Shown piece after piece: positions 2,315 through 63,339 of a stretch of DNA of 64,000 nt. The translations under genes and the position numbers were made by a program. Position 1 is the stretch's first letter, and every line of letters begins with the position of its first letter. Below the pieces are notes generated by a model, which saw only the letters and a list, made by a program, of their open reading frames with translations, did no database searches and was not told the DNA's origin. This DNA comes from Tyto alba. Its lineage: Eukaryota > Chordata > Aves > Strigiformes > Tytonidae. The stretch lies in the NCBI RefSeq assembly GCF_018691265.1, contig NW_024881316.1, positions 24,653,819 to 24,717,818 on the forward strand, in the 5' to 3' direction.

Positions 2315-5300
2315 TCTTATACAAATACACATATATACATATGTGTATCAGAGTGCCTGATGTGATACAAATCTGTTTCATCTCAACACATTTATCCTCA
2401 GAACTATTCAGTCCCTCTCACCAATCTCTAATGGAATACCTTTACTTCAGTAATATTTCCAAAACTTTACAGATGAGATGGAAGAAAACAACCTATCTGA
2501 GAAACTCGGCAAGGTATTTGTTGTCTAATTCCATTTTGTGAAGGCATCTTGGGGCTTCCTTTGGATAGCTCCACAGCAGAAACCATAACAACTGCTTTCG
2601 AAAGAACCAAGAAGTGGCTCCTGGGAGGCAGAGGAAAGGGGATTGATGGTGTAGAAACAAGCAGAAAAGTCAAAGGCAAGGAAAATGGAGGAGGCTGGAA
2701 GGCTGTGATGAAGAGTGAAACAAAAGGAGATATGAAGAAGCTCTAAGTCCCTGCACAGAGAGGCCAGGGGTGCACATGAGAATAAGAGGCTACGTTCATG
2801 TCTCATATACTCCCAGTGCAGAACAGCAGTCCATTGATCCACCCGAGAAGTGAGATGTCTACCTTGGGTTTTATTTCTTACTTTTACCTTTTTTTTAACC
2901 TTTTTTCTCAGTGGAAACTGAGATAAACTGTGAGGATATATTGACAGGCTGTCAACAAACTCAGAATTCAGGCAAACTCTCTGCTTCCAACACCTGAAGA
3001 GCTTGACCTCAAAACTTCCCCAATATTTTTCAAAACAAGTTACTCATTTGGTAGCAATTATTGGCAAACATACATTTAATCTATTAAAATGCTCATCTTG
3101 CTGATTTTAACAATACTAGAATCTAATTTGAAAATAATGAATTAAAAATAAACTTTGTTACAAAAATGTAATTGTCATTCCTATCTATATTGTTAAACTC
3201 ATCAAAAAGCTCATTAAATAATTATGAGCATGCATCTGGTAACAAAAAGAGGTGTCAGTAGTAAAAAATTCACTCTTGTGTCATAAATGTACTCATACTG
3301 CTACTATTAGCAGTAAGTTATACCTCCTTATGTGAATTTTGAAAATAATATTGAAAATATCCTTTAATTAAATATGTTCTATTACATTCCAAAGCCTACA
3401 GTAAAGAATATATAGTTAATTAAATTACATATGTTTATTTCAACACTGAGGCTATAATTCAGCTTCATGTTCATGACCTTGTTGGAAAAAAAAGACTTTT
3501 CTGTGCCAGCTGAACCTTTTTAATTTTTAAATGCTCTGTCTCAAGAGAAAATTGATGGTGTGTAGCAGATTGCCTTAGCTCTCACTCAATGAATTATCAA
3601 GGGTGGTATCAACTATGGTCCGAGAGCTCACATATGTAAAAGTAGTGGTGAACTGGCCACTGAATTTAGACTTCAAGAAGATTTGTATCCTTCAAAATCA
3701 AATAAAATTGGCACTGGATTTTGATACTGGGCAAACTTGTACTATATGTTGTTTTATGTTTTCAGTCCTTTATGATATCCTCAATAACTAATTATCCGAA
3801 GCAATCCTGGTGGTTGATGTCTGGTATTTAAAACAGAAGCTATACCAGCAACTGCAAATTGTGGGATGTGTGATTTAAGTGGGGCTAATTTCATAATTTA
3901 ATAAATCCCCCTTGCTAACATCCCAACAGCACATATCAGAAACTTGAAGTGTAAATGCTAGTGTTACTCCAAACTCACATAGGCAACACAGTCTGCAAAA
4001 CAACTCTGTTTTTTTTCTTCATTAATCATTAAGAATAATTAATGCTTATCTAGTCTGTGCACTGGACAAAAGCAGATTTGGGAGATCAGCACATTTTTGC
4101 TCATTAACTCTACACAGGCTACATAAATAAAAGATAAACCTAGCATGCAAATGTTTAAACCCGTTAAATGTCAACTGATTACCTCCTTAGAGCCAAGTGT
4201 CTCATTTTCTGGAATAGGCACTATGGGATGATTGGGCTGCCGAGCCAAGATGTCACAGGTCGGAGAGAGCGTGAGGTTAAAAAAGGGAAAAGAAATCCAT
4301 TATCCATTCAATTTCTATATAAAATATCACTAAAGTTTAATAATGAAAGCCAATACCCTCAGTCATGCAAAGGATAGCAAGGTAATGAGATCCTATTTAT
4401 GTTCAACAGGCTGCCTCCTGAACAGGCTCTCTCTTACTACTCCTTGTCTGTATGAAAATCTATGGCCTGTTTTCTGTAATATCATATTCCCATAATTAAA
4501 AGGGTGGGGAAGGGATAAATCACTTTCCAATACGAAAGAGGCATCTCAAGTAAAAATCACAGCAAGGACACCTGTCTCATGATACATTTATTATGAGATA
4601 ATGAATGTAAAGTTATTTAAAACTGCAACTATATTCTTTCACTTTGAATATCTGTCTTCTTAAATCTCCAAAAGAGCTCTTCTTAATCTTAAATTTCATA
4701 CATATAAATAAATCAAACAAACATTTACCTAAAAATGCTGTATAGCAGTAATTAGTATGTGCATAAAGGAGTTTTAGATCTCAGTGATTTTCCAGTGTTT
4801 TGAGTATTATGACTTACATCTGAATAAGGAAGTTTGATGGATGTGGCTCAAGGGAAAAACCATACCAATTTCCATAATATTTTAATTAGAATACAGGTAA
4901 AAAGATAAACTGGAGCTTACAAAGGCAGTGTTAAGATCATAAGCTTGTGAGGTTTTCCTATACGGTGACACAGAGACATCCTCTTTAGAGCAAAGATTGC
5001 TGAAAGTGTCGGAGTTTGGGTATTTTGGAACTGTATGAAACCAAGGTTGAAAGAAGCTTGATATTTTCAGTGTATCAAAGGCATTACTTTGTTTTGGTAT
5101 TTAGATCAAGTAGTAAATTAAGAAATTATGTGTTGCTTAAAAAAATTATTTCTCTTGACCTAAGAAAATTAATTTTGAAGCTGTGCTTTTTGAGAAGCAA
5201 AACCTATCTGCTAAACTGGCCCTATATACAAAGAAGGATACTGAAGTGGAATATACTCATATTTTCTACAATTACATTATGGATCTGCTATGTATTTCCT

Positions 5301-13073: not shown

Positions 13074-13545
13074 AATCACAGAATCATAGAACAGCTGAGG
13101 TTGAAAGGGTCCAACCTTTTGTGGGAAAGGCAGCCTGGATGACATTATCTAGCACCCTGTCCAAATGCATCTTAAACATGTCCCCACAGTGATGGGGACT
13201 CCACCATGTCCCTGGGGAGGTTGTTTCAGTGATTGTTCTCACTGTAAAAATATTCTTTCATATAACAAGATGAAACCTTTCCCAGTGCAAGTTGTACCCG
13301 TTGTCTCTTCTCTTCTCCATGTGGCTCCCTGAGATCCTTCTCTTCTCCAGGGAGAACAGACTTAACTCCTTCAGTCTTTCCTCATAGGGCAGGTTCTCCA
13401 GCTCTTTGATCATCTTTATGGCCCTCCTTTGGACTCTCTCCAGTCTGTCCTCATCTTTTTTTTGAACTGCATGGACCAGAACTGGACACAGTACTCCAGG
13501 TGCACAGATGTACTCTTCCACCCTACACAGTCCTTTGCTAAAGGC
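13074..13545 (-). mobile_element. CR1 LINE 3' fragment
   Basis: A 5'-truncated CR1 copy on the minus strand. The 3' end is marked by GAATCACAGAATCATAGAA at 13074-13092. Reverse-transcriptase C-terminal peptides are visible in two frames: [18 protein letters not shown], then [20 protein letters not shown] and [19 protein letters not shown]. The frame change shows it is decayed. It lies in the flank downstream of MLIP. The 5' limit is approximate. Confidence 0.88.
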
Positions 13546-14423
13546 TGGATGGATTCCCAGCAGGAGCATGCTTTGGAGTTAATCACAGAGCTAAATGTTA
13601 CCTCAGGCTTCACTGCAATAGTTGTGCTGAAGTTCACATTCCTGAGCTGGTTTATTCCAATCAAAAGGAAAATTAACTTTTTTAATAATAAATATTCAAC
13701 TCATAATTATTCAAGACCAAGGAGTATAAATAAGAGTGGGGAAGGAGATCACAAGGGAGATGACAAGGCCAATGAAAACAGAATCAAATAACTTGAATGG
13801 GCAACTTTTTTATTCCAGAAGCAACCTGTGCACAGATGAGTGGATAGAGCCTTCTCTGCTCTTCTCCAAGCAGGATAGACACAATACCTTGGTTCCTGCT
13901 GTCTCCTCACATCAAAGCTAAAATCACATTGTGAAATTATTTGGGGCACATCTTATGGATTTCATCACTCTTAGCAGTTATAATCTACAAAACCTGCCAG
14001 GTCTATCTTTCAGCTACATCTGTGTAATTCCATCAGCCACGAAGATACAGGCACTTGGTAGAGCTTCAGACAAAAGCAACCTGGCAGTGAGTCCAGTCTG
14101 CCTAAACACCACCACAGTGTCCTTTCAATAAAGCATTTCAGATAGAGACAGCTGTTATTTTCTTATGCTCTGAGCCAACAAATTAAATGATACTCATTTT
14201 AGGAGCTCACCATATCTAGCCTCCCTAATATAAGATACAGGTGATCATTCTGGTTTTCCCATATTCCATTTCCCATTTCTGAGGGAACACTTGTTTAAGG
14301 TAATTTTTTAATTAAAGTGTGGGTGAAGAATAGCAACTCCATTCACTGGCACATCCTGTCCATTCTCAATAGTGTATTTACAACATATCTCAAATGATTG
14401 TAAAAATTTAAGGCGACGGGTTT

Positions 14424-17737: not shown

Positions 17738-17913
17738 CTAATGACTCAGCTGAACTCTACCTAGAATTAAAAGGATAAAAGCCTGACAAAGCTCTTGAAT
17801 CACATCACACTTGATGCTCACCTTATTGTACAAAGAGTTGTGACTGTAAGGGCTATAAGGATACTCGTGAACATCACACGTGATGGAAGACAAGTGGCTG
17901 AAAGGTTTAGACA
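17738..17913 (-). pseudogene. MLIP: Ancestral-frame continuation of MLIP C-terminus
   Basis: This is the part of exon J whose other frame resembles the human MLIP tail: KPFSHLSS, then HEYPYSPYSHN, NK-S and I-E positions, open to a TAG at 17738-17740. The resemblance fades after about 40 residues, and the final residues (ILLILGRVQLSH) have no visible counterpart. It is out of frame with the upstream half of the exon, so it is listed separately. Only this piece is decayed or shifted; the rest of the gene is intact. If the base loss is an assembly error, this is simply the true C-terminus. Confidence 0.55.
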
Positions 17914-18003
17914 GTGAGCGAGGGAGATGGATGGAGGATGCACAGGGGACCTAGTTGAAGGGATCAGTTTAGTTGGATACAGAGGATGTAGGAGAGCAGT
18001 CTC
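17818..18003 (-). CDS. MLIP: MLIP exon J, C-terminal exon, apparently frameshifted
   Basis: Minus-strand exon after a strong acceptor (TTTTTTTCATAG|GAGACT). Read in the phase 0 given by exon I, it encodes ETALLHPLYPTKLIPSTRSP and on to ISLAHC. Human MLIP has SLHPLYQTKLYPPAKSLLHP...SHADCL here, with about 16 of 28 residues identical. In this frame the protein then reads LNLSATCLPS... and stops at TGA 17818-17820 after 61 codons. One frame over, starting near 17905, the sequence reads KPFSHLSS and later YSHNSLYNKVS, matching human PFSHLSFS and LSHNACNKLS. That frame stays open to a TAG at 17738-17740. So a net one-base loss (or equivalent indel) lies near 17903-17913. It may be a real lineage change, an allele or a sequence error. 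A donor-like AAG|GTGAGC overlaps the TGA. Confidence 0.75.
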   Translation of the reverse strand, partial: ETALLHPLYPTKLIPSTRSPVHPPSISLAHCLNLSATCLPSRVMFTSILIALTVTTLCTIR

Positions 18004-25808: not shown

Positions 25809-28800
25809 ATAGAATCATGGAATGGTTTGGTTTGGAAAAGACCTTAAAGATCATCTAGTTTCAACCCCCCTGCCATGGGCAGGGACACCTTCTACTGGGT
25901 TCAGGTTGCTCAAAGCCCCGTCCAACCTGGCCTTGAACACTTCCAGGCAGGGGGCAGCCACAAACCTTCACAGTAAAGAATTTCTTCCTTATAGCTAATC
26001 TAAATCTACCCTATTTCAGTTTAAAGATGATACCCCTCATCCTGTCACTAAACTCCCTGATAAAGAATCCCTCCCCACCTTTCCTGTAGGTCCCAATTAA
26101 GTAATGGATGGCCGCTATAAGGTCTCCCCAGAGTCTTCTCTTCTCCAGCCTGGACAATCCCAACTCTCTCAGCCTGTCTTCACAGGGGAGGTTCTCCAGC
26201 CACCTGATCAACTTTGTGGCCTCCTCTGGACCCTCTCAAGCAGGTCCATGTCCTTCTTATGTTGCAGGCCCCAGAGCTGGACACAACACTCCACGTGAGG
26301 TCTCACAAGAGTGGAGCAGAGGGGGAGAATCCCGTCCCTCAACCTGATGGCCATACTTCTCTTGATGCAGCCCAAGATACAGTTGGCACATTGCCAGGCA
26401 ATGTCTATCCTCTCATCAACTAACACCCCCAATTACTTCTTCACAGGACTGCTCTCAATCCACTCATTGCCTGGACTGTATTTGTGCTTGGGATTTCCCC
26501 AACCCATGTGCAAGGCCTTGCACAGGACCCCCTGTCAAGCCTGACCAAGTCCCTCTGGATAACATCCCTTCCCTCCAGCACGTTGACCACACCGCATAGC
26601 TCAGTGTCATCAACAAACTTGCTGAGGGTTCACTCAATCCCACTGTCCATGTCACCAACAAAGATGTTAAACAGAACTGGTCCCAATACTGATCCCTGAG
26701 GGACTCAACTTGTCAATGCTCTCCTCTCTGACATCGAGCTGTTGACTGTAGCCATCTTTGAGTGCAACCATCAAGCCAATTCCTTATCCACTGAGTGCTC
26801 CATCCATAAAATCCATGTCTCTCCATTTTAGAGACAAGGATGTAATGCAAGACAGTGTCTAACGCTTTACACAAATCCAGGTAGATGACATCAGTTGATC
26901 TTCCATTATTCACCAACACCGTAACCCCATCGTAGGCCATCAAATTTGTCAGGAATGTTTTGCCCTTAGTGAAACCATGTTGGCTGTCACTAATCACCTC
27001 TTATTTTCCATGTGCCCTAGCATAGTTTCCAGGAGGATCCACTCCATGATCTTGCCAGGCACAGAGGTGAAACTGGCTGGCCTGTAGCTCCCGTCGTCTT
27101 CTTTTTTTCACATTTAAAAAATGTGGGTTAAATTTCCCCTTTTCCAGTCAGTGGGAACTCCACCGGATTGTGATGACTTCTCAACTATGATGGCTAGTGG
27201 CTTAGCAACCTTCCAAATTCCATCAGGACCCATAGATGCATCTCATCAGATCCCACGGACTTGTGCGCCTTCAGGCTCCTTAAATTGTCTCGAACCTGAC
27301 CTTCTCCTGCAGTGGGAAGTTCTTCACTTTCCCAGTCCCTGCCTTTGCCTTCTGCCTCTTGGGCAGTGTGGCTGGAGCACTTGACAGTGAAGACTGAGGA
27401 AAAAAGTCATTGAGTACCTTGGTCTTCTCCATATCTTAGGTAACGAGGTCTCCCATTTCCTTCTGGAGCAGGCCCACATTTTACCTAGTCTTCCTTTTAT
27501 CACCAATCTACCTACAGAAGGTTTTTTTGTTGCCCTTGATGTACCTGGCCACTTTTAATTCTGTCATGGCTTTGGCCTTCCTAACCTGATACCTGGACAA
27601 TTTTTCTGTATTCCTTCCAGTCTATCTGTCCTCACTTCCACCCTCTGTAGGCTGCTTTTTTGTGTTTGAGCTTGTCCAGGAGCTACTTGTTCATCCATGC
27701 AGGCCTCTTGGCGTTCTTACCTGACTTTTTCTTTGTTGGGACGCACCTCTCCTGAGCTTGTAGGAGGTGATCCTTGAATATTAATGAGCTTTTTTGGGCC
27801 CCTCTTCCCTCCAGGACTTTATCCCATGCTAGTCTACCAAGCAGATCCCTGTAGATGGACTGTACACGGCTTGGCAGTCTCTTGGTGACATCCCTGATAC
27901 GAGCTCTCAGTAAGCCGCACACCTCTACAGAGAGTGTATCAGGTCAGCAGATCATGCCTCTCAGAAGAGAGTCCCCTACTCCTGTCACCCACTGTCTTTC
28001 CTCAGATGTGCACGTTGCTCTACAGGGAGCAGGTCAGGCTGCCTTACTCAGCTCCAGCCTCTCTCCTGCTGTGACGGGTCTTTCCTCTTCCCTCTGCAGA
28101 GCGGTGAAGCGCTTCTGTGAGGGCACCTCAGGCTTTGGTGGAAGTCTCTTCCTCCTGCAGGTCCCTGCCATTGCAAGCTTCCATTCTTCTGCATTATTGC
28201 CCCCCCCCTCCCTTCCGTGTGTGCCAGCGGGGGAGTTTTTGGCTGTTTGGCCGTGGGCTGCGGTTCCACTGCAGACTGCTCTTGGAACCAGCTCTCTAAC
28301 TCCTTCTCAGCCCCCCTGACCCTACGCAGCCTTCCCACCGCCTCCCGCAGCCCGGCAGCGGCTCCGGCAGCTCCTCCGCCCGGGCTCCCCCTTTGCCGGC
28401 AGCTCTGCCGCCCGTCCCTGCCCCGGGAGAAAGGTCTGGGCGCTCCCTGCGGCCTGAGGCCTGCACTGCGGCCTCCCCCTCCCGCAGCCCCGGCTGGGGG
28501 GAGGCACCGGCCACCGCCGGGGCAGATGGCGCAGACCCCCCCGCCGGAGCTGCCGCCTCTGCTCTCAGAGGAGTGCCCGCCGTCCTGCCCTCAGGGGCAG
28601 GGAGGAGGAGTGCCCGTGGCCCGGGCGGGTGGTCACAGAAAGGTGCCCCGCTGCTGGGCTGGGGGGACTTCAAGCCTCTCCTCTTGGCCCGTGGAATGTC
28701 TCTCCTTGGAAGAGGAGCACGGACTGCTGTGCAAACCGCCGCGCCGCGCCCGGCCTGCCCGCCCTGGTCACCGCGCTCCCCAGGGCTGTCCTTCAAGTGC

Positions 28801-35100: not shown

Positions 35101-36693
35101 AAGGGATGAGGCCATCCTGGGTCTTGTGCTAGGGGGGGCTCACTTTGAGGGGAGGGAAGTGGAAGGAAGAGATGAAGACAGATCTATGGAAAAGCACCTC
35201 ACTGTGACCTCACCTTAAGCACCAAAGGACAAGCCACCAGTAGGTTTATTAGCTGGGACAGAAATAGCCTTTGTATGTCCTACCAAGGAAACAGAGCAAG
35301 AGAGGCGGATAGAGCTGTGATGTATGAGGGCTGTTAGGGACACCTGGGTCATCCTTCAGGAGACTATGCTTAGAGTGCATTGATGCCAGAGTCCAGAAGA
35401 GCCTGGACCCACCAAGTTCAGCCACCACAGCACATCCTGAAGACCACAGTCTGTATTCTGACACACAAAAAATTCAACATGCCTGTACAATTTATAGGAA
35501 AGGTTAGACTATCAACAATCCCCTATGTTTTTCCCAAATGTATTTTTAAATAATGATTTGTTTCATTTATCTAGAAAGTTCCAGAGAGACTAGGAAGTAA
35601 GAGCTTATAAGGATGATTTTCTATGCCAGCAAAGAAAACTTAACTGTATCCCTAGGCATATAAAATGAATGCCTGAATTTATGTTATATGTCAGCCACAG
35701 TTTTGGGACCTGGAGATCTGCACTGGAGTGATATTAAATATACTCTGTTCTCACAGACTACCTCTGAAACACACTCTTTTATTTCATTAAAAATCTCTCT
35801 TCCAATATGCTTTCTAATTAGTATGAGCCAGCACAATCTGTCAAGTAAAAATCACAATATGCAATAAAATATGCATGCCACCACATTCAAGAATCAAAAT
35901 GGAATTGATCAGTCAAGCATTGTGCTGGCATAAAACTGGGAGGCCTCTATTGCTTTGCCAGCACTGCTTTGATTTGAGGTTCAATAGAAATGCTGAATGA
36001 TGAATAGTAAGCAGAGATTTCTCACCACATGACTAGATGAGTTCTAAGTACAATATGGAGCCTGAAGTAACTGTGTGTGCTAGTGAGAATTAAAATGTTA
36101 ATTGGGTTTAATGTTTCAATAATTGAACTGATGACTCAATACAGAGATTTGCTTTGTATGTTGGAATGTGTGTATATGTGACAAAACAGCTACTATTCAT
36201 CTAAGACTAAACTGTGGGTTTTCAGCCAGTTTGGAAGGAAAAGTTTGGGTCAGCCTCAAATTCTGATGGATAGGCAAGAACCAAAGGACTCCTACCAAAG
36301 CAAGTCCCCTACTATGCAGGCTGAGTCCGATAATAAACCCTTCCGCACCTGTAATAGTCTGTTTGTCAAGTAGCTGAGCTCTTGCCCAACACTCAAAGCA
36401 AACAACAATAGAGTGTGTGAATAAATGAATTTTAACAGCATATTCAGCGGTAAAATTTTCAGTACACACTGCACTGAGGAGATTTCAGCCATGATGGATC
36501 TACAGCAGTGGGATATCTCAAGTCTCAACTGCCACTGCTTTAACATACTTGTTTCTCTGTACTAGATGCAACGCCTCATGTCATGAGTAGAAGCCCATGT
36601 CTGCTACATGCAGAATCACATAGTACAGTAGAAAGATTAGACAAATGAGACAATTCTGCATGAAAAATATAGAGTAATTATAAAAGTACTTAC

Positions 36694-36738
36694 ATATCTT
36701 GTTTCACGACCAGCTGCTCTCTGCAGTGTTGTTGACAC
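36694..36738 (-). CDS. MLIP: MLIP exon H (TTLQRAAGRET, 45 nt)
   Basis: Minus-strand small exon of 15 codons, phase 0-0. The acceptor is TTTGTATAAG|GTGTCA and the donor AGATAT|GTAAGT. The peptide is VSTTLQRAAGRETRY, matching human TPTTLPRAAGRETKY. The donor has a full GTAAGT, while the acceptor has a T-rich tract ending in an AAG. The human protein then has about 15 residues (ANLSSPSSTVSESQL) for which I could not find a coding exon in the 13.7 kb before exon I. Confidence 0.93.
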
Positions 36739-38448
36739 CTTATACAAAAAAAAATAGTTATATTAAGAGCAATGTGTTAATTTGTGGAGTAACTCAGAGA
36801 TTTTCATCATTGTGACAAGTTACTAGTTGCTCAAATTCAAGAAAACACCAGTTTTCCATAAAGGTTCATGAGTTAAATGAGAATAAGGTATATTAAAGTT
36901 TTGCTTGAGGTACTTGTTGTAGAACATATATTTAATTTTTATTGCTCAAAAAATATTGATCCTGTTCTATTCAAGCTGGCTTTTGAATTATCTGTGAGAA
37001 CTCCCATAACAAAATGCCTATTAGTAGACAGCCACAGGTGTGGTTGTCCCATGACATTTGCTCACAAAATAACCTGAAACACCATCTTTCCATGTCCTTT
37101 GCAAGAACTTGCTGTCATCAGACTAATCCATTATATTGCTAAGGCATTTACTTATAACACCTACTCTTTTTCCCCTCCTGTCTGTGACTCCCTATTATCC
37201 TCTGTTTAAGCACTTTGTGCTCTCATTCTGAGGTTCTCACAATCTTTATCTTGGTCCCTATGCTGCATCCTGTTAAACTCACCTTTTGCCCCCTTTATTC
37301 GGTTTCATTACTGCTAACAAATGCCTTCCATTTGGCCCAAGGAAGTATTTTTTAGATGCTACAGCAAAAAAGTTCAACTTAGTACTAGATTTCTAACCAC
37401 TTTGGATTCAGTGCAGGCACTGGAAAACATTTTCTCAATAACAGTCTCTGCCTACTTTTTCAGCTACCATCTTTTAATTTGTTTCCATCTTACAGCTGCC
37501 TGAGGCCTGATTCACCACTGAATGATGGTTGACAGAAGTAATTTTAAAAATGAAAATGAAATTTGAAGTGTATATTGAATATAATCTCTCAGGAATGCTG
37601 TTTCTGTGCCCTATTTTTTCATGGTAGACTGGACATTGTGCAGGATTTTTTGAATATATTAACTTTTTGATAAATTCCTCTCTCAGAAATCCCTTTCCTC
37701 CTCTTTCCAGTTGGATTTCTGCCATTTTCACTCTCCTATAACTAGTAATACCAACTTAAATTTACCTCAAGCAAACTGAATACAGGACCCTCCTCCCTTG
37801 GTTATTCATCCTTCTGAACCCATAAGGCACACCAATATAAGGTAATGAAACCAGAAGATTAACACCAGTATAGAAAGTTATTCCTGCCTCTCACTACCTG
37901 TTTCTGAGTTAGCCAGGGTAAATGGATGTAGTAGATATCCCCCTGTTGTGAGGGGCCAGAGTTAAAAGGAAATCAGCACTTAAGAGCAAGTCAACATAAT
38001 AATTTAATTATCCCATTGTTTGAAAACCAGTAATGAATATGAAAATAAATCTGTTCTGAAGGTTGTTTCCAATCACTGAAGCTAGAAACACTGGCTCCTC
38101 TGCAGTAAGGACCCATAGATGGAATGAAATCTAGGAAAGAACCAGAGATCCTGCAATATGGAAGACAAGATATGAAGGACTTCTTTCTTGTGGATCCTAA
38201 CCTCTGAAACCTTAACAGATAGCTTCTCTTTCATAATATAACTCCTTCTGACTTCAGGAAAGCATCCTGCAACAAAGACTGTACGACTCCAGGGCTACAG
38301 TTCTGTCCTTCCATGTCTTTCAAATCACTAAACAAGTCTACTGATGTTGCACCTCTTAACTGGAGTTTTCTGTTGTTATAGGGTTTACTGTTGTGATTTT
38401 GTTTGCTTGTAAAGAGCCTGTAAAGAGCATTTGGACTTATTCACCTAC
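36739..38448 (-). other. MLIP: MLIP intron G-H
   Basis: A 1.7 kb intron of unremarkable AT-rich sequence. No repeat family, extra exon or RNA gene was seen in it. Confidence 0.8.
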
Positions 38449-38508
38449 CTTGCCAACATCTGACTCAGTGCTCATCTGCAGAAAACTTGGAGAAGATTCA
38501 CATCGGCG
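38449..38508 (-). CDS. MLIP: MLIP exon G
   Basis: Minus-strand exon of 20 codons, phase 0-0. The acceptor is AATTTTACAG|CGCCGA and the donor GGCAAG|GTAGGT. The peptide is RRCESSPSFLQMSTESDVGK. The human protein has 20 residues in the same place, HSSDSPSRSPKTLLGSDTVK, and the two share the S-SPS and SD-VK pattern. Sequence match alone is modest; the call rests on position, phase, length and good splice sites. The intron separating it from exon F is 95 bp. Confidence 0.87.
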
Positions 38509-38603
38509 CTGTAAAATTATTTTCAACAGAGAACAGACTTATTAGCGACAAGAGACAAAAGAAAAGGAAGATAAAAAGTCAATCCCACATACTGATGGGT
38601 TAC

Positions 38604-53102: not shown

Positions 53103-54716
53103 CTTGGGTTTGATGTTTTCATGGTCAGAAGACAGGGAAAAAGACTGTGGTGAAGTCAGCTTTCTGGGTCTTGATGGCAGTGTGCCTGGTGACTTGTCTG
53201 AGACAGGAGATCTGCATGTTAAAACTGATGAGGTGGCAGATTGCTCAGGTCTTGGAGAGGAGGTATTAGATCTATAATTTGTGTGCACCAATGAAGAATT
53301 AAGCTTCAGTGAATGGGAATTAATACTATCAGTTTGTGGAACCAGTGGAGTAGAATGAATCCATGAGAGAGACTGCTGCTTTGAGACACTTGAAGGGGTA
53401 GGAGAGGAGGCACTCATCTCCTGAACAGACGTTTGGGATGAATCCGATATAGATCTAGAAGCTGAATGCAAAAGACTTGGGGAAGGAGGTGAGTGTTTTT
53501 CTAGGGTGGAGGAGAGTATGCCACTAAGACTGGTAGAAGAAAGCAAAGGATATGACCGACAGGTAAAGATGGGTGAGTAAGTGTGTACTCTCTGAGACTT
53601 CTGAGGTGCCCGGGACCTGGAGGCAGCATACCTCAACCCTTCTGGAGAAGGAGAGGTAGGGTGTGCAAGGGCACAAGGAGGAAGAGGAGCAGACTGCAAG
53701 CCTGGAGAGGCAATTGATTTTCTATGGGAGGAAATGGGGGATGACAGAGGACTTTGGAAGTCTGGAGAAAACGTTCTGACTGGCAGGTGCTTTTTAGGAG
53801 AAAGGGACCTCGCCCGAGGTGTGGGATGAGGCTTGGAGTGTAAAGGCAGATGTTGAGCCCATCCTGAAAGCCAATATTCCCCTCTGCTGGGAGAATCTGG
53901 CCTTATAGGAGGGCTTGAAACAGATTTCCTGGGGGTTGGGGGAGTTGTTTTGGATTTTTGATCTATTGCAAGTGTTGAGGAACTAAGGGAGCTAGAAGAA
54001 AATGTGGGACAAGAAGCAGGTGAAAGTGGTCTCTGCTGAGAAGATCCTGATCTCAAAATAGCAGTTAAGAGGGTCAGTCTGGTTGGCAGAGGGGATCTGG
54101 CTCCTGACTTTGCTAAATTTCCTCTAGGTGACATTTGTGTGCATGGCTCATTTATACTACATATGGTCAAAGAGGACCCATAAAGAGAGGGTGGAGACAA
54201 AGGTTTAGGGCTGGGAGATAGTGAATGTGTTATTATATGTACAGGGACAAGAGATAAAGCATTCAATCTTTTGGAAGAACTGGGGGATAAAGACAGAGCT
54301 GAAGATCCTTGAATTTCAGCTGAATGTAGAGGATTGGGGGAAAGACTTGGGCTCTTTGCTGGAACAAAGGATGTGGTGAGGTCTCCCATTTTGCAATCAC
54401 AGCCAAGAGTATAGAGACTTGGTGTTTGTAGGTTATCATACAATCGAGGAGTGGAGTAACAATTGTTTGATGCAGAAGAGGATAATTTAGACATGGAGGG
54501 AGGTGAACTATGGCAAGCAGACTGAAAGAAGATAGATGAATCTTGCTTAGAAAACCCAGTTGCTGACTGCCAGTTTCTACGAGAGTCTTCCAGTGAAGAA
54601 GCTTGATTCAGGTTAACCATGGCACCACACGCTACTTTCTGATTAGTCGGAGAAATTAAGTGGACAGCAGGTGTTTTAGAGGAAAGATGATCAGAGATGG
54701 AAAGAGTAGAAATTAA
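53103..54716 (-). CDS. MLIP: MLIP exon C, giant Ser/Pro-rich exon of the long isoform
   Basis: A single open exon of 538 codons on the minus strand, phase 0-0. The acceptor TTTTTCTCCAG|TTAATT has a long pyrimidine tract and a TACTAAC branch site. The donor is CCCAAG|GTACTC. The protein begins LISTLSISDHLSSKTPAV and ends DHENIKPK. It is dominated by Ser and Pro with many SP and SPS steps, for example SLSPSPKPLSPPSLYGSSL, ARSLSPKKHLPVRTFSPDF and LTSPQSFSLSSDHEN, so it is probably disordered and a target for proline-directed kinases. No folded domain, membrane span or signal peptide is visible. It lies between the exons coding for human QQKHGQ and YKTKSSYKAF, where long MLIP isoforms carry extra sequence. 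The open frame continues upstream into the intron, but that part lacks an ATG start and precedes a strong acceptor, so I exclude it. Confidence 0.9.
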
Positions 54717-54748
54717 CTGGAGAAAAAAGAAAAACATAAATGTTAGTA
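54717..54748 (-). promoter_or_regulatory. MLIP: Branch point and 3' splice site of exon C
   Basis: The coding strand has TACTAAC (54742-54748), identical to the optimal branch-site sequence. It is followed by a T/C-rich tract and CAG at 54717-54719. The likely branch adenosine is about 27 bases from the exon. The strength suggests constitutive recognition of the giant exon in permissive tissue. Confidence 0.6.
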
Positions 54749-59223: not shown

Positions 59224-59358
<135 letters not shown>

Positions 59359-61165: not shown

Positions 61166-63180
61166 CTACAAAAGATAGGAGGAAAAAGATCCCAATTAGC
61201 TGCGTTTAATTTGTATTCCCCAAAATGCAAAATAATTTTGGCTTGCAGCAGTGGCTGGCACTGCGCTACCAAAAGTGAGGAGGGCAAATGAAGAATTTGG
61301 GCATGAGCACCCAGCAGAAACCAGCTCCCCAGGTACCGCCCCAGCTTCCAGCCCCCCAGCCGATGCTGTGGAAGATGCCTTCCTGGTGACTCGCAGAGCA
61401 ACAGGGGACTCTGGGCACAACGATGGCCCGAGCCTGGGACTGGCACGGGAACCAAAAAAGAGGGTGCAGTCAAGCCGAATGAGCTGTCAGACCAGACTAC
61501 GCCAGATACGATGGGAAGGCATCCCAACTGTGGGATCCACGGGAGCAGACAATGCTCCTCAGAGGAGTCTGACAGATAAATCTGGGACAAAATCTATACA
61601 TATTAATGAAGAAACAAAGGCCATTAAGCCAGGGCATTCTCTGAAGAGAGCAGACAAAGAATCTGAGGTCAGAGAGCTTTACTGTATGTTCAAGCTTCTC
61701 AGCACAGACCACAATTGTTCTTCATATTTTCTGCATTTTCCACTTCCAGTATGTAACTTCTCAAGCGTACTCTGGGTGAGAGCAGAAGTAGCGCAGGCTG
61801 GACATAGGACACACACATCACCAAATCATTCAATATTGAAACTGTTATGGTAATCATATTTCTCTTGAAGAAGGAATCAGGTAAAAGAATAGAAATATTG
61901 TGCACTGCAAGAGAAAGTCTGTAGATGGGGCACAGATTTGAATCCTGCCTGAGGAATCTAGTAATGAAAAATTTTCAGTGGCAGCTCCACAAGTCCCTGG
62001 AGCTCAGTTCTTTAAAAAAAAATATTGGACCATAAAGAGGGATACCACCAGTATGTCTTTAGAGGTTTATCTTCATTATCTGATGTTGTTTGTTTTTTTA
62101 AAATGTTTTTTCAGGTTCTAGACATTTTAGAAAAGGGAGTAATCAGTGCGAGAAAGGCCTCACTACTGCATCACCTGCTTGGAAAGTTTTCTCTGCCTAC
62201 AGAGAAACACAAGGGGACAGAGGTCAGGAATACCGGATTCTGCCTTACCCAGGGCACTACTTGCAGCAAAACCAATACGGAGTGGCTGGAAATGTAACTC
62301 ATGAGTTAAACATCCTGAGGATAATATTCTAATGCATATCTCTTCAAACATGTCCGTTCTCTGCCCAGAACATCCCTTCTTTTAGTCAGATAGGACACTG
62401 AAAATGCTGGAGCATATTCTGGTCAGAGGACTATGAACTCACGTGAAAAGTCTATTAGCACCAAGAACTGCAGCTCCAGCAATGTCCCAGGGAAGGAGCT
62501 GTTACACAAGAGCAGAATCACCATAAGCATTAATATTAATCTGAGGGTTCCAGTTTCCTCTCAAGCAGCATGGAATAAAATAATATACTATTAAGCATTG
62601 TGAGGTAGGAAAGGAATAACAAACACTATGGGCTGACTAAAGGCAGGAGAACCAGGAATATTGTGCTGTTGACTTCACAGTCACAGGAAATCCTGTGGAC
62701 AAACTTCCAAAACCAAAAAGCAAGCTTTCACTTTGCTGTGTTACTACACGGTTATGAAAGGGATTGGCATCTTTGCTGGAAGCCACAGCACCGGTATTTG
62801 CTGATACCAGGATCCAGTAGCCAAGTCTTGGTCGATTCCCATGTGATAACACTCCTCACACACCACCCTCGCTCACTCTCATGAAGATCAAGAAGGAATT
62901 TCCCCTCATCTGCCAAGAATACAGCCCTTGCATGACTGACGGAGGAGAGTATGGAGATGTGCAAGGGTTGCCTTCAAATATAAACTCTGCCACAGGCTGT
63001 TGAGCAGATATCAGTCTTCTCTTGCACAATGATTTTGGTAGGCTTGGTAATTAAAATAAAACACAAGCCAAGAAATTGTTCAAGGGAAAGCGCTTCAGTT
63101 CAGCGATGCTCAGGACAAAACTTTCTGTAGCTTTTGAAAGAGTGGAAAAATTAGCACACAAAAAAAAAAAAAAAGCCTAC
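61166..63180 (-). other. MLIP: MLIP intron A-B
   Basis: A 2.0 kb intron between exons A and B. Its first bases after the donor form a 15-base poly-T on the coding strand. The part at 61250-61560 is more GC-rich than its surroundings and holds a long open frame on the plus strand that I do not recognise. No repeat family was identified. Confidence 0.8.
63160..63174 (-). promoter_or_regulatory. U-rich tract directly after exon A donor
   Basis: On the coding strand the donor GTAGGC is followed by 15 T and then GTGTGC. U-rich runs just after a 5' splice site are the known binding context for TIA1/TIAL1, which helps U1 recruitment at weak donors. The tract is seen directly; its use is inference. 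Confidence 0.45.
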
Positions 63181-63339
63181 CTTATTTATTATTTCTTGAT
63201 TGCTCAGATCCTTTGGCTCATCTGGAATTGTCACAAGGAACTTAGAAACATCTACAACCTCAAAATGAGTTGGAAGTCTTCCAATGGATGGTATGAATGT
63301 GAAGGTCAGTGGTTTCGTTCCAGATTCTTGAGAAGTGAC
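63181..63339 (-). CDS. MLIP: MLIP exon A (N-terminal conserved block)
   Basis: Minus-strand internal exon of 53 codons, phase 0 at both ends. It is bounded by an acceptor TTTTGTAG|GTCACT and a donor AATAAG|GTAGGC. The peptide starts VTSQESGTKP, contains FTFIPSIGRLPTHFEVVDVS, then KFLVTIPDEPKD, and ends QEIINK. This aligns closely with the human MLIP N-terminal segment IFTFVPTVRRLPTH...DTSKFLVKIPEE, as I remember it. MLIP binds A-type lamins, sits at the nuclear envelope and in nuclear bodies, and as CIP binds the cardiac factor ISL1 and restrains hypertrophic signalling; that role is family knowledge. The first exon with the start codon is not seen and should lie beyond the right end. The donor is followed at once by 15 T on the coding strand. 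Confidence 0.93.

What the first reader, a model, noticed from the sequence alone, without database searches (positions are those of the whole stretch)
17738..18003. MLIP C-terminal exon appears frameshifted: homology switches frame mid-exon
In the spliced frame the exon matches human MLIP from LHPLY-TKL through S-A-CL. From about 17905 the match moves to another frame (PFSHLS, then SHN and NK-S), consistent with a net one-base loss near 17903-17913. Both halves keep recognisable similarity, so the change must be recent or an error in this sequence. If real, this lineage has replaced roughly the last 45 residues of MLIP with an unrelated tail of about 29 residues ending at TGA 17818.
Basis: partly seen in the sequence, partly recalled or inferred. 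Interest (0 to 1): 0.75.

Follow-up and report, generated by a model that had tools for sequence, protein, structure and literature searches.

The report
Broken optional exon in barn-owl MLIP
An optional exon of a muscle gene, kept readable in many birds, reptiles and mammals, carries a small deletion in this barn-owl sequence, so including it would scramble the protein's tail, while skipping it, as the annotated owl protein does, leaves the protein normal.

Summary
The frame switch is real in this sequence. The window is the Tyto alba (barn owl) MLIP gene, minus strand. The exon at 18003-17822 is not the C-terminal exon: it is an internal cassette exon with consensus splice sites, between exons 22990-22865 and 4236-4183. 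In 41 of 47 sauropsid rows it is 63 codons (189 nt), and it is recognisable in turtles, a crocodile, marsupials and placentals. In the owl it is 182 nt. The loss is 7 nt (not 1) at 17903-17906, removing the conserved Pro-Gly of CLN-PG-PFSHLSS and shifting the frame. The annotated Tyto protein (P0001) skips the exon and keeps the normal end. Included and spliced normally, translation would end at a TAG in the next exon after a new 32-residue tail. The TGA at 17820-17818 lies in the intron, within the donor signal. Protein models suggest separate frame breaks in this exon in canary, a ground parrot and a sandgrouse; none of 38 listed passerine rows has it in frame, though absence from a model is weak evidence. 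Best reading: lineage-specific frame loss in a dispensable alternative exon; well explained and modestly interesting. Reads, RNA and a second Tyto assembly could not be examined.

The parts
53103..54719 (-). Large MLIP exon, identity anchor for the gene
   Evidence: Pfam PF15274 MLIP E 1.2e-195 for the ORF that holds it; 100% identical over 539 aa to Tyto alba MLIP P0001
22865..22990 (-). MLIP coding exon upstream of the cassette exon (TKPGV...DNEQ), donor CAG|gtgagt, ends in phase 0
   Evidence: 100% to P0001 residues 860-901; junction read
17822..18003 (-). Frame-disrupted alternative (cassette) exon, 182 nt, acceptor tttcatag|GAG, donor AAG|gtgagc
   Evidence: Two-frame match to MLIP of many birds; 63 codons in 41 of 47 sauropsid rows; skipped in P0001; one match in the assembly
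17903..17906 (-). Breakpoint of the net 7-nt loss (ambiguous over a CC microhomology); removes Pro-Gly of CLN-PG-PFSHLSS
   Evidence: Match boundaries, lengths
17818..17820 (-).
   Evidence: Sequence and translation
4183..4236 (-). Next coding exon (PNHPIVPIPENETLGSKE); the shifted frame meets TAG at its bases 14-16, 38 nt before its donor
   Evidence: 100% to P0001 residues 901-919 (with the Q at the junction); joined translation; distances counted by hand

Best explanation
This is a real 7-nt deletion of the barn-owl lineage inside an ancient, optional (cassette) exon of MLIP. The splice sites fit the consensus and the neighbouring exons join in frame when it is skipped; the skipped form is the annotated protein. 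Including it shifts the frame at CLN and ends translation in the next exon, giving either a truncated isoform with a 32-residue novel tail or an RNA removed by nonsense-mediated decay. The deletion was probably tolerated because the exon is optional. Shown: the exon's identity, the size and place of the loss, intact frames in relatives, the annotated skipped form, and the joined-frame consequence. Inferred: that the DNA is correct, the splicing pattern in owl tissue, the fate of the inclusion RNA, fixation, and neutrality.
For: Abutting matches in two frames with E values down to 1e-25. In 63 of 66 proteins found with the exon as query it reads in frame from PG[PS]F to YNK/YNE; the exceptions are Pterocles P0030, one of three Anser models (P0117) and Pezoporus P0072. 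The strigid owls Athene and Bubo are intact, so by parsimony the change came after barn owls split from them. P0001 residues 22-919 match other exons in the window without an internal frame break. The loss is 7 nt at a CC...CC microhomology implied by two proline codons, not a homopolymer slip. The exon has one match in the assembly. Inclusion and skip isoforms are annotated in other birds. Models P0109/P0120 (canary), P0072 and P0030 show frame breaks of other kinds.
Against: No reads, RNA or second Tyto assembly could be examined. The window and P0001 come from the same assembly (contig length 51,327,406), so P0001 is not independent support for the DNA. P0001 is named isoform X1, so other Tyto isoforms may exist; one search listed 120 of 555 hits and one search was insensitive. 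The test for relaxed constraint is not significant: private substitutions in this exon versus the rest are 4 vs 23 in Tyto and 42 vs 599 summed over 24 other birds, Fisher p 0.11. Gene models, not transcripts, underlie the skip/include evidence.
Confidence: 0.8

Rival explanations
1. Assembly or sequencing error in this exon of the Tyto assembly.
For: No read support could be checked; the protein annotation is from the same assembly.
Against: A 7-nt loss outside a homopolymer is not the usual single-base error (general knowledge). P0001 residues 22-919 show no internal frame break in the window, a weak argument since P0001 was derived from this assembly.
Confidence: 0.08
2. The shifted exon is used as a new functional C-terminus: inclusion replaces the normal end by a hydrophobic tail (LSATCLPSRVMFTSILIALTVTTLCTISPIIP) that could act as a membrane tail anchor for a lamin-binding protein.
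For: Splice sites fit the consensus; best 19-residue Kyte-Doolittle mean 1.96, against 0.92 for the best stretch of P0001; the canary's shifted tail reaches 1.92.
Against: Such stretches arise by chance: 268 of 44,472 stop-free six-frame windows of this sequence reach 1.96, and 1 of 318 windows in the corresponding shifted frame of the other exons does, with 11 of 318 at 1.6 or more (some exon edges there are approximate). The annotated protein skips the exon. The stop lies 73 nt before a possible 3'UTR splice donor, which if used would make the RNA an NMD target.
Confidence: 0.05
3. Segregating (polymorphic) deletion carried by the sequenced bird rather than fixed in barn owls.
For: Both halves remain readable, so the break need not be old; a single sequence was seen.
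Against: No data either way.
Confidence: 0.07

Closest known systems
Intact MLIP cassette exon of other birds (e.g. Theristicus P0007, Pluvialis P0014, Athene P0020)
   Same: Same gene position (DQDxEQ-type end | exon | PSHPIVPIPENE), same start and same end codon; 70-93% identity in the two halves for these three
   Different: 63 codons in frame against 182 nt with a 7-nt loss in Tyto
Canary MLIP models (P0109/P0120)
   Same: Exon read in the same shifted frame after about the same point, giving a similar tail (LSATSLPLCVMFMRILIALTDTTLCTIR)
   Different: Pro-Gly is kept, so it looks like a smaller, separate loss; protein models only, no DNA seen
Pezoporus P0072 and Pterocles P0030 models
   Same: Frame of the same exon broken, as read from the proteins
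   Different: Other positions: after CHLS with an early stop; and near the 3' end with an altered end GEDQ|PSHP

Membership tests
MLIP (Pfam PF15274) | Match above the curated score | tested here: met
   653 bits against cut-off 27 for the large exon; the 61- and 60-aa exon pieces alone gave no Pfam match
Alternative cassette exon | Consensus splice sites, and skipping keeps the frame | tested here: met
   tttcatag|GAG ... AAG|gtgagc; skip joins EQ to PNHP in frame
Alternative cassette exon | Isoforms with and without it | tested here: met
   In other birds' gene models: P0007/P0009, P0014/P0016. In Tyto one form was seen, and it skips
Frame-broken exon | Length change not divisible by 3 against relatives | tested here: met
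   182 vs 189 nt
Functional loss of the exon | Relaxed constraint on the exon in Tyto | tested here: inconclusive
   Fisher p 0.11
Functional loss of the exon | Not included, or degraded, in mRNA | not testable with these tools
   No RNA data held

The most novel reading that the evidence does not exclude
The deletion turned an ancient in-frame MLIP insert into a switch. Skipping makes normal MLIP. Inclusion makes a C-terminally truncated MLIP with a hydrophobic, possibly membrane-anchoring tail (the canary's separately shifted tail is similarly hydrophobic), and frame breaks in several bird lineages have made the same exon into a repeated on/off switch for the MLIP end.
Probability: 0.05. Interest if true: 0.6.

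Novelty: new member of a known kind. Interest (0 to 1): 0.33.

Why it matters
It identifies an MLIP segment (core LTPGPFSHLSS) kept readable from marsupials to birds but apparently dispensable in some birds. MLIP loss causes myopathy in people (PMC9174206), so natural losses of one segment hint at what part of the gene can be done without. It is also a caution that exon-by-exon comparison can mistake an optional exon for the end of a protein.

Tried and rejected
Rejected: one-base loss (match boundaries and lengths give 7 nt); C-terminal exon (two further coding exons follow); TGA 17818 as the stop of a spliced mRNA (it is intronic). A secure escape from nonsense-mediated decay was considered and dropped. 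The stop is 38 nt before the donor of exon 4236-4183, but a possible further donor (ATGATG|gtgagt) 8 nt after the normal stop would put it 73 nt upstream of a junction (distances counted by hand). That donor is inferred only from sequence and from pigeon model P0121; the exon it would join was not found in 19.9 kb downstream of the window by a pattern for the pigeon's end. Looking for a Tyto isoform that includes the exon (canary query) gave the two canary rows and two intact birds out of 6 candidates; that search needs shared 5-residue words and is not conclusive. Pfam on the exon pieces gave nothing. Rfam at gathering scores gave nothing in the window. One search was a script that failed on an offset error, redone. 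One search used 24 of the 28 bird species, one row each: Pterocles, Pezoporus, Apteryx and Eudromia were left out. One search used exon edges taken; those of 38365-38520, 36682-36741 and 63178-63339 are approximate and include some intron.

Papers: PMC9174206 (part 1 of 4 of the text, and passages), PMC7998221 (passages), PMC7069322 (passages); the others only as listings. No paper on this exon in birds appeared in the listings. One search asked for any 2 of 5 terms, and its 10 listed papers (of 37,100) have no occurrence of MLIP.

Full report
Identity. The window lies in a 1.25-Gb, 70-contig assembly at C56:24653819-24717818. Contig C56 has 51,327,406 bases, the same length as the contig listed for P0001, NCBI MLIP isoform X1 of Tyto alba. 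P0001 maps to the minus strand from 63339 to 4183 (residues 22-919), with the large exon 100% identical over 539 aa, and that ORF has an MLIP Pfam match of 653 bits. The window and P0001 are therefore the same assembly, and P0001 is not independent evidence for the DNA.

Observation. P0001 passes from exon 22990-22865 directly to exon 4236-4183 and leaves out 18003-17822. In other birds this exon is included in some models, between ...DQDxEQ-type ends and PSHPIVPIPENE. Matched to them, the owl exon splits into two frames that meet at base 17905. For P0014, residues 906-938 lie at 18003-17905 and residues 941-970 at 17905-17816. Two residues are absent and one base is shared, so 7 nt are missing. 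The lengths agree: 182 nt here, and 63 codons in 41 of 47 sauropsid rows. Of the other six, two are shorter in frame (Amazona 61, Eudromia 58) and four were not measured by the pattern (P0030, P0118, P0117, P0072). The breakpoint is ambiguous over CC, as expected if the two proline codons of N-P-G-P-F supplied a microhomology (inference; ancestral bases not seen).

Conservation. With the exon of Theristicus as query, 66 of 69 candidates passed E 1e-3: 35 bird rows (28 species), 10 turtle, 2 crocodile and 19 mammal rows. L.PG[PS]F is present in 65 of 66, and 63 of 66 read on in frame to YNK/YNE. The owl loss removes this Pro-Gly. Of the other owls seen, Athene and Bubo are intact; the Strix model P0047 ends before the exon and says nothing.

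Consequence. Upstream donor CAG|gtgagt, acceptor tttcatag|GAG, donor AAG|gtgagc and downstream acceptor cggcag|CCC give phase 0 throughout in the ancestral 189-nt arrangement. Skipping gives ...DNEQPNHPIVPIPENETLGSKEAANERGSV, with the last coding exon about 3.44 kb beyond window position 1. Inclusion gives ...ISLAHCLN followed by LSATCLPSRVMFTSILIALTVTTLCTISPIIP and a TAG: 27 residues from the exon and 5 from the junction and next exon. If the exon at 4236-4183 is skipped too, the shifted frame runs through the last exon as RLPMKEVLFSYDG.... Pigeon model P0121 holds a similar string, so the alternative frame of the last exon occurs in at least one annotated bird model.

Decay or function. The inclusion stop is 38 nt before the donor of its exon, and 73 nt before a possible donor just after the normal stop (counted by hand). 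Whether the RNA is degraded depends on whether that second donor is used. The tail is hydrophobic (1.96, canary tail 1.92, against at most 0.92 in P0001), but windows this hydrophobic are 0.6% of all stop-free six-frame windows here, and 1 of 318 in the matching shifted frame of the other exons (some exon edges approximate). I read it as chance. Private amino-acid changes are somewhat more frequent in the owl exon (4, against 23 in 726 gap-free columns of the rest) than in 24 other birds summed (42 against 599), p 0.11. This does not establish relaxation. Patagioenas, Amazona, Strigops and Chlamydotis, with readable exons, also have 4-7 private changes.

Recurrence. Canary models P0109/P0120 follow the same shifted frame but keep Pro-Gly, so a different loss is likely. 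Pezoporus P0072 stops after CHLSFHHV. Pterocles P0030 changes frame near the end and rejoins by GEDQ|PSHP. Of 38 rows that I class as passerine (taxonomy recalled), 0 hold PG[PS]F[SC]H, 2 hold YPTKL (canary) and 1 holds YNK (Zonotrichia), and no row is from a species I class as passerine. But non-passerine rows such as Ciconia P0006, Gavia P0021, Apus P0043 and Struthio P0111 also lack the exon, and these are protein models clustered at 90% identity, with 120 of 555 hits shown. Absence from a model therefore does not show a broken exon, and the number of independent breaks needs DNA.

Verdict. This is an ordinary kind of event (frame loss in an optional exon) in an interesting gene. It is real unless the assembly is wrong, and on present evidence it is not a wholesale replacement of the MLIP C-terminus.

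Noticed in passing
window 28200-28800: CpG-rich island (GC 0.69-0.78, CpG observed/expected about 0.6) in the intron between exons 32275-32231 and 22990-22865; no Pfam match in the four ORFs scanned there. Could be an internal promoter.
   Followed up: partly
P0109, P0120, P0072, P0030, P0085: Bird MLIP models that suggest separate frame breaks in or near the same cassette exon (canary, Pezoporus, Pterocles, Melozone).
   Followed up: partly
window 59224-59356: Perfect AGAT microsatellite, 33.2 copies.
   Followed up: no
window 13261-13578, minus: ORF piece that resembles the end of a CR1-type LINE (resemblance recalled; no Pfam match).
   Followed up: no
L002, about 3.4 kb beyond window position 1: Possible splice donor 8 nt after the normal MLIP stop; pigeon model P0121 reads the last coding exon in another frame and continues past it.
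   Followed up: partly
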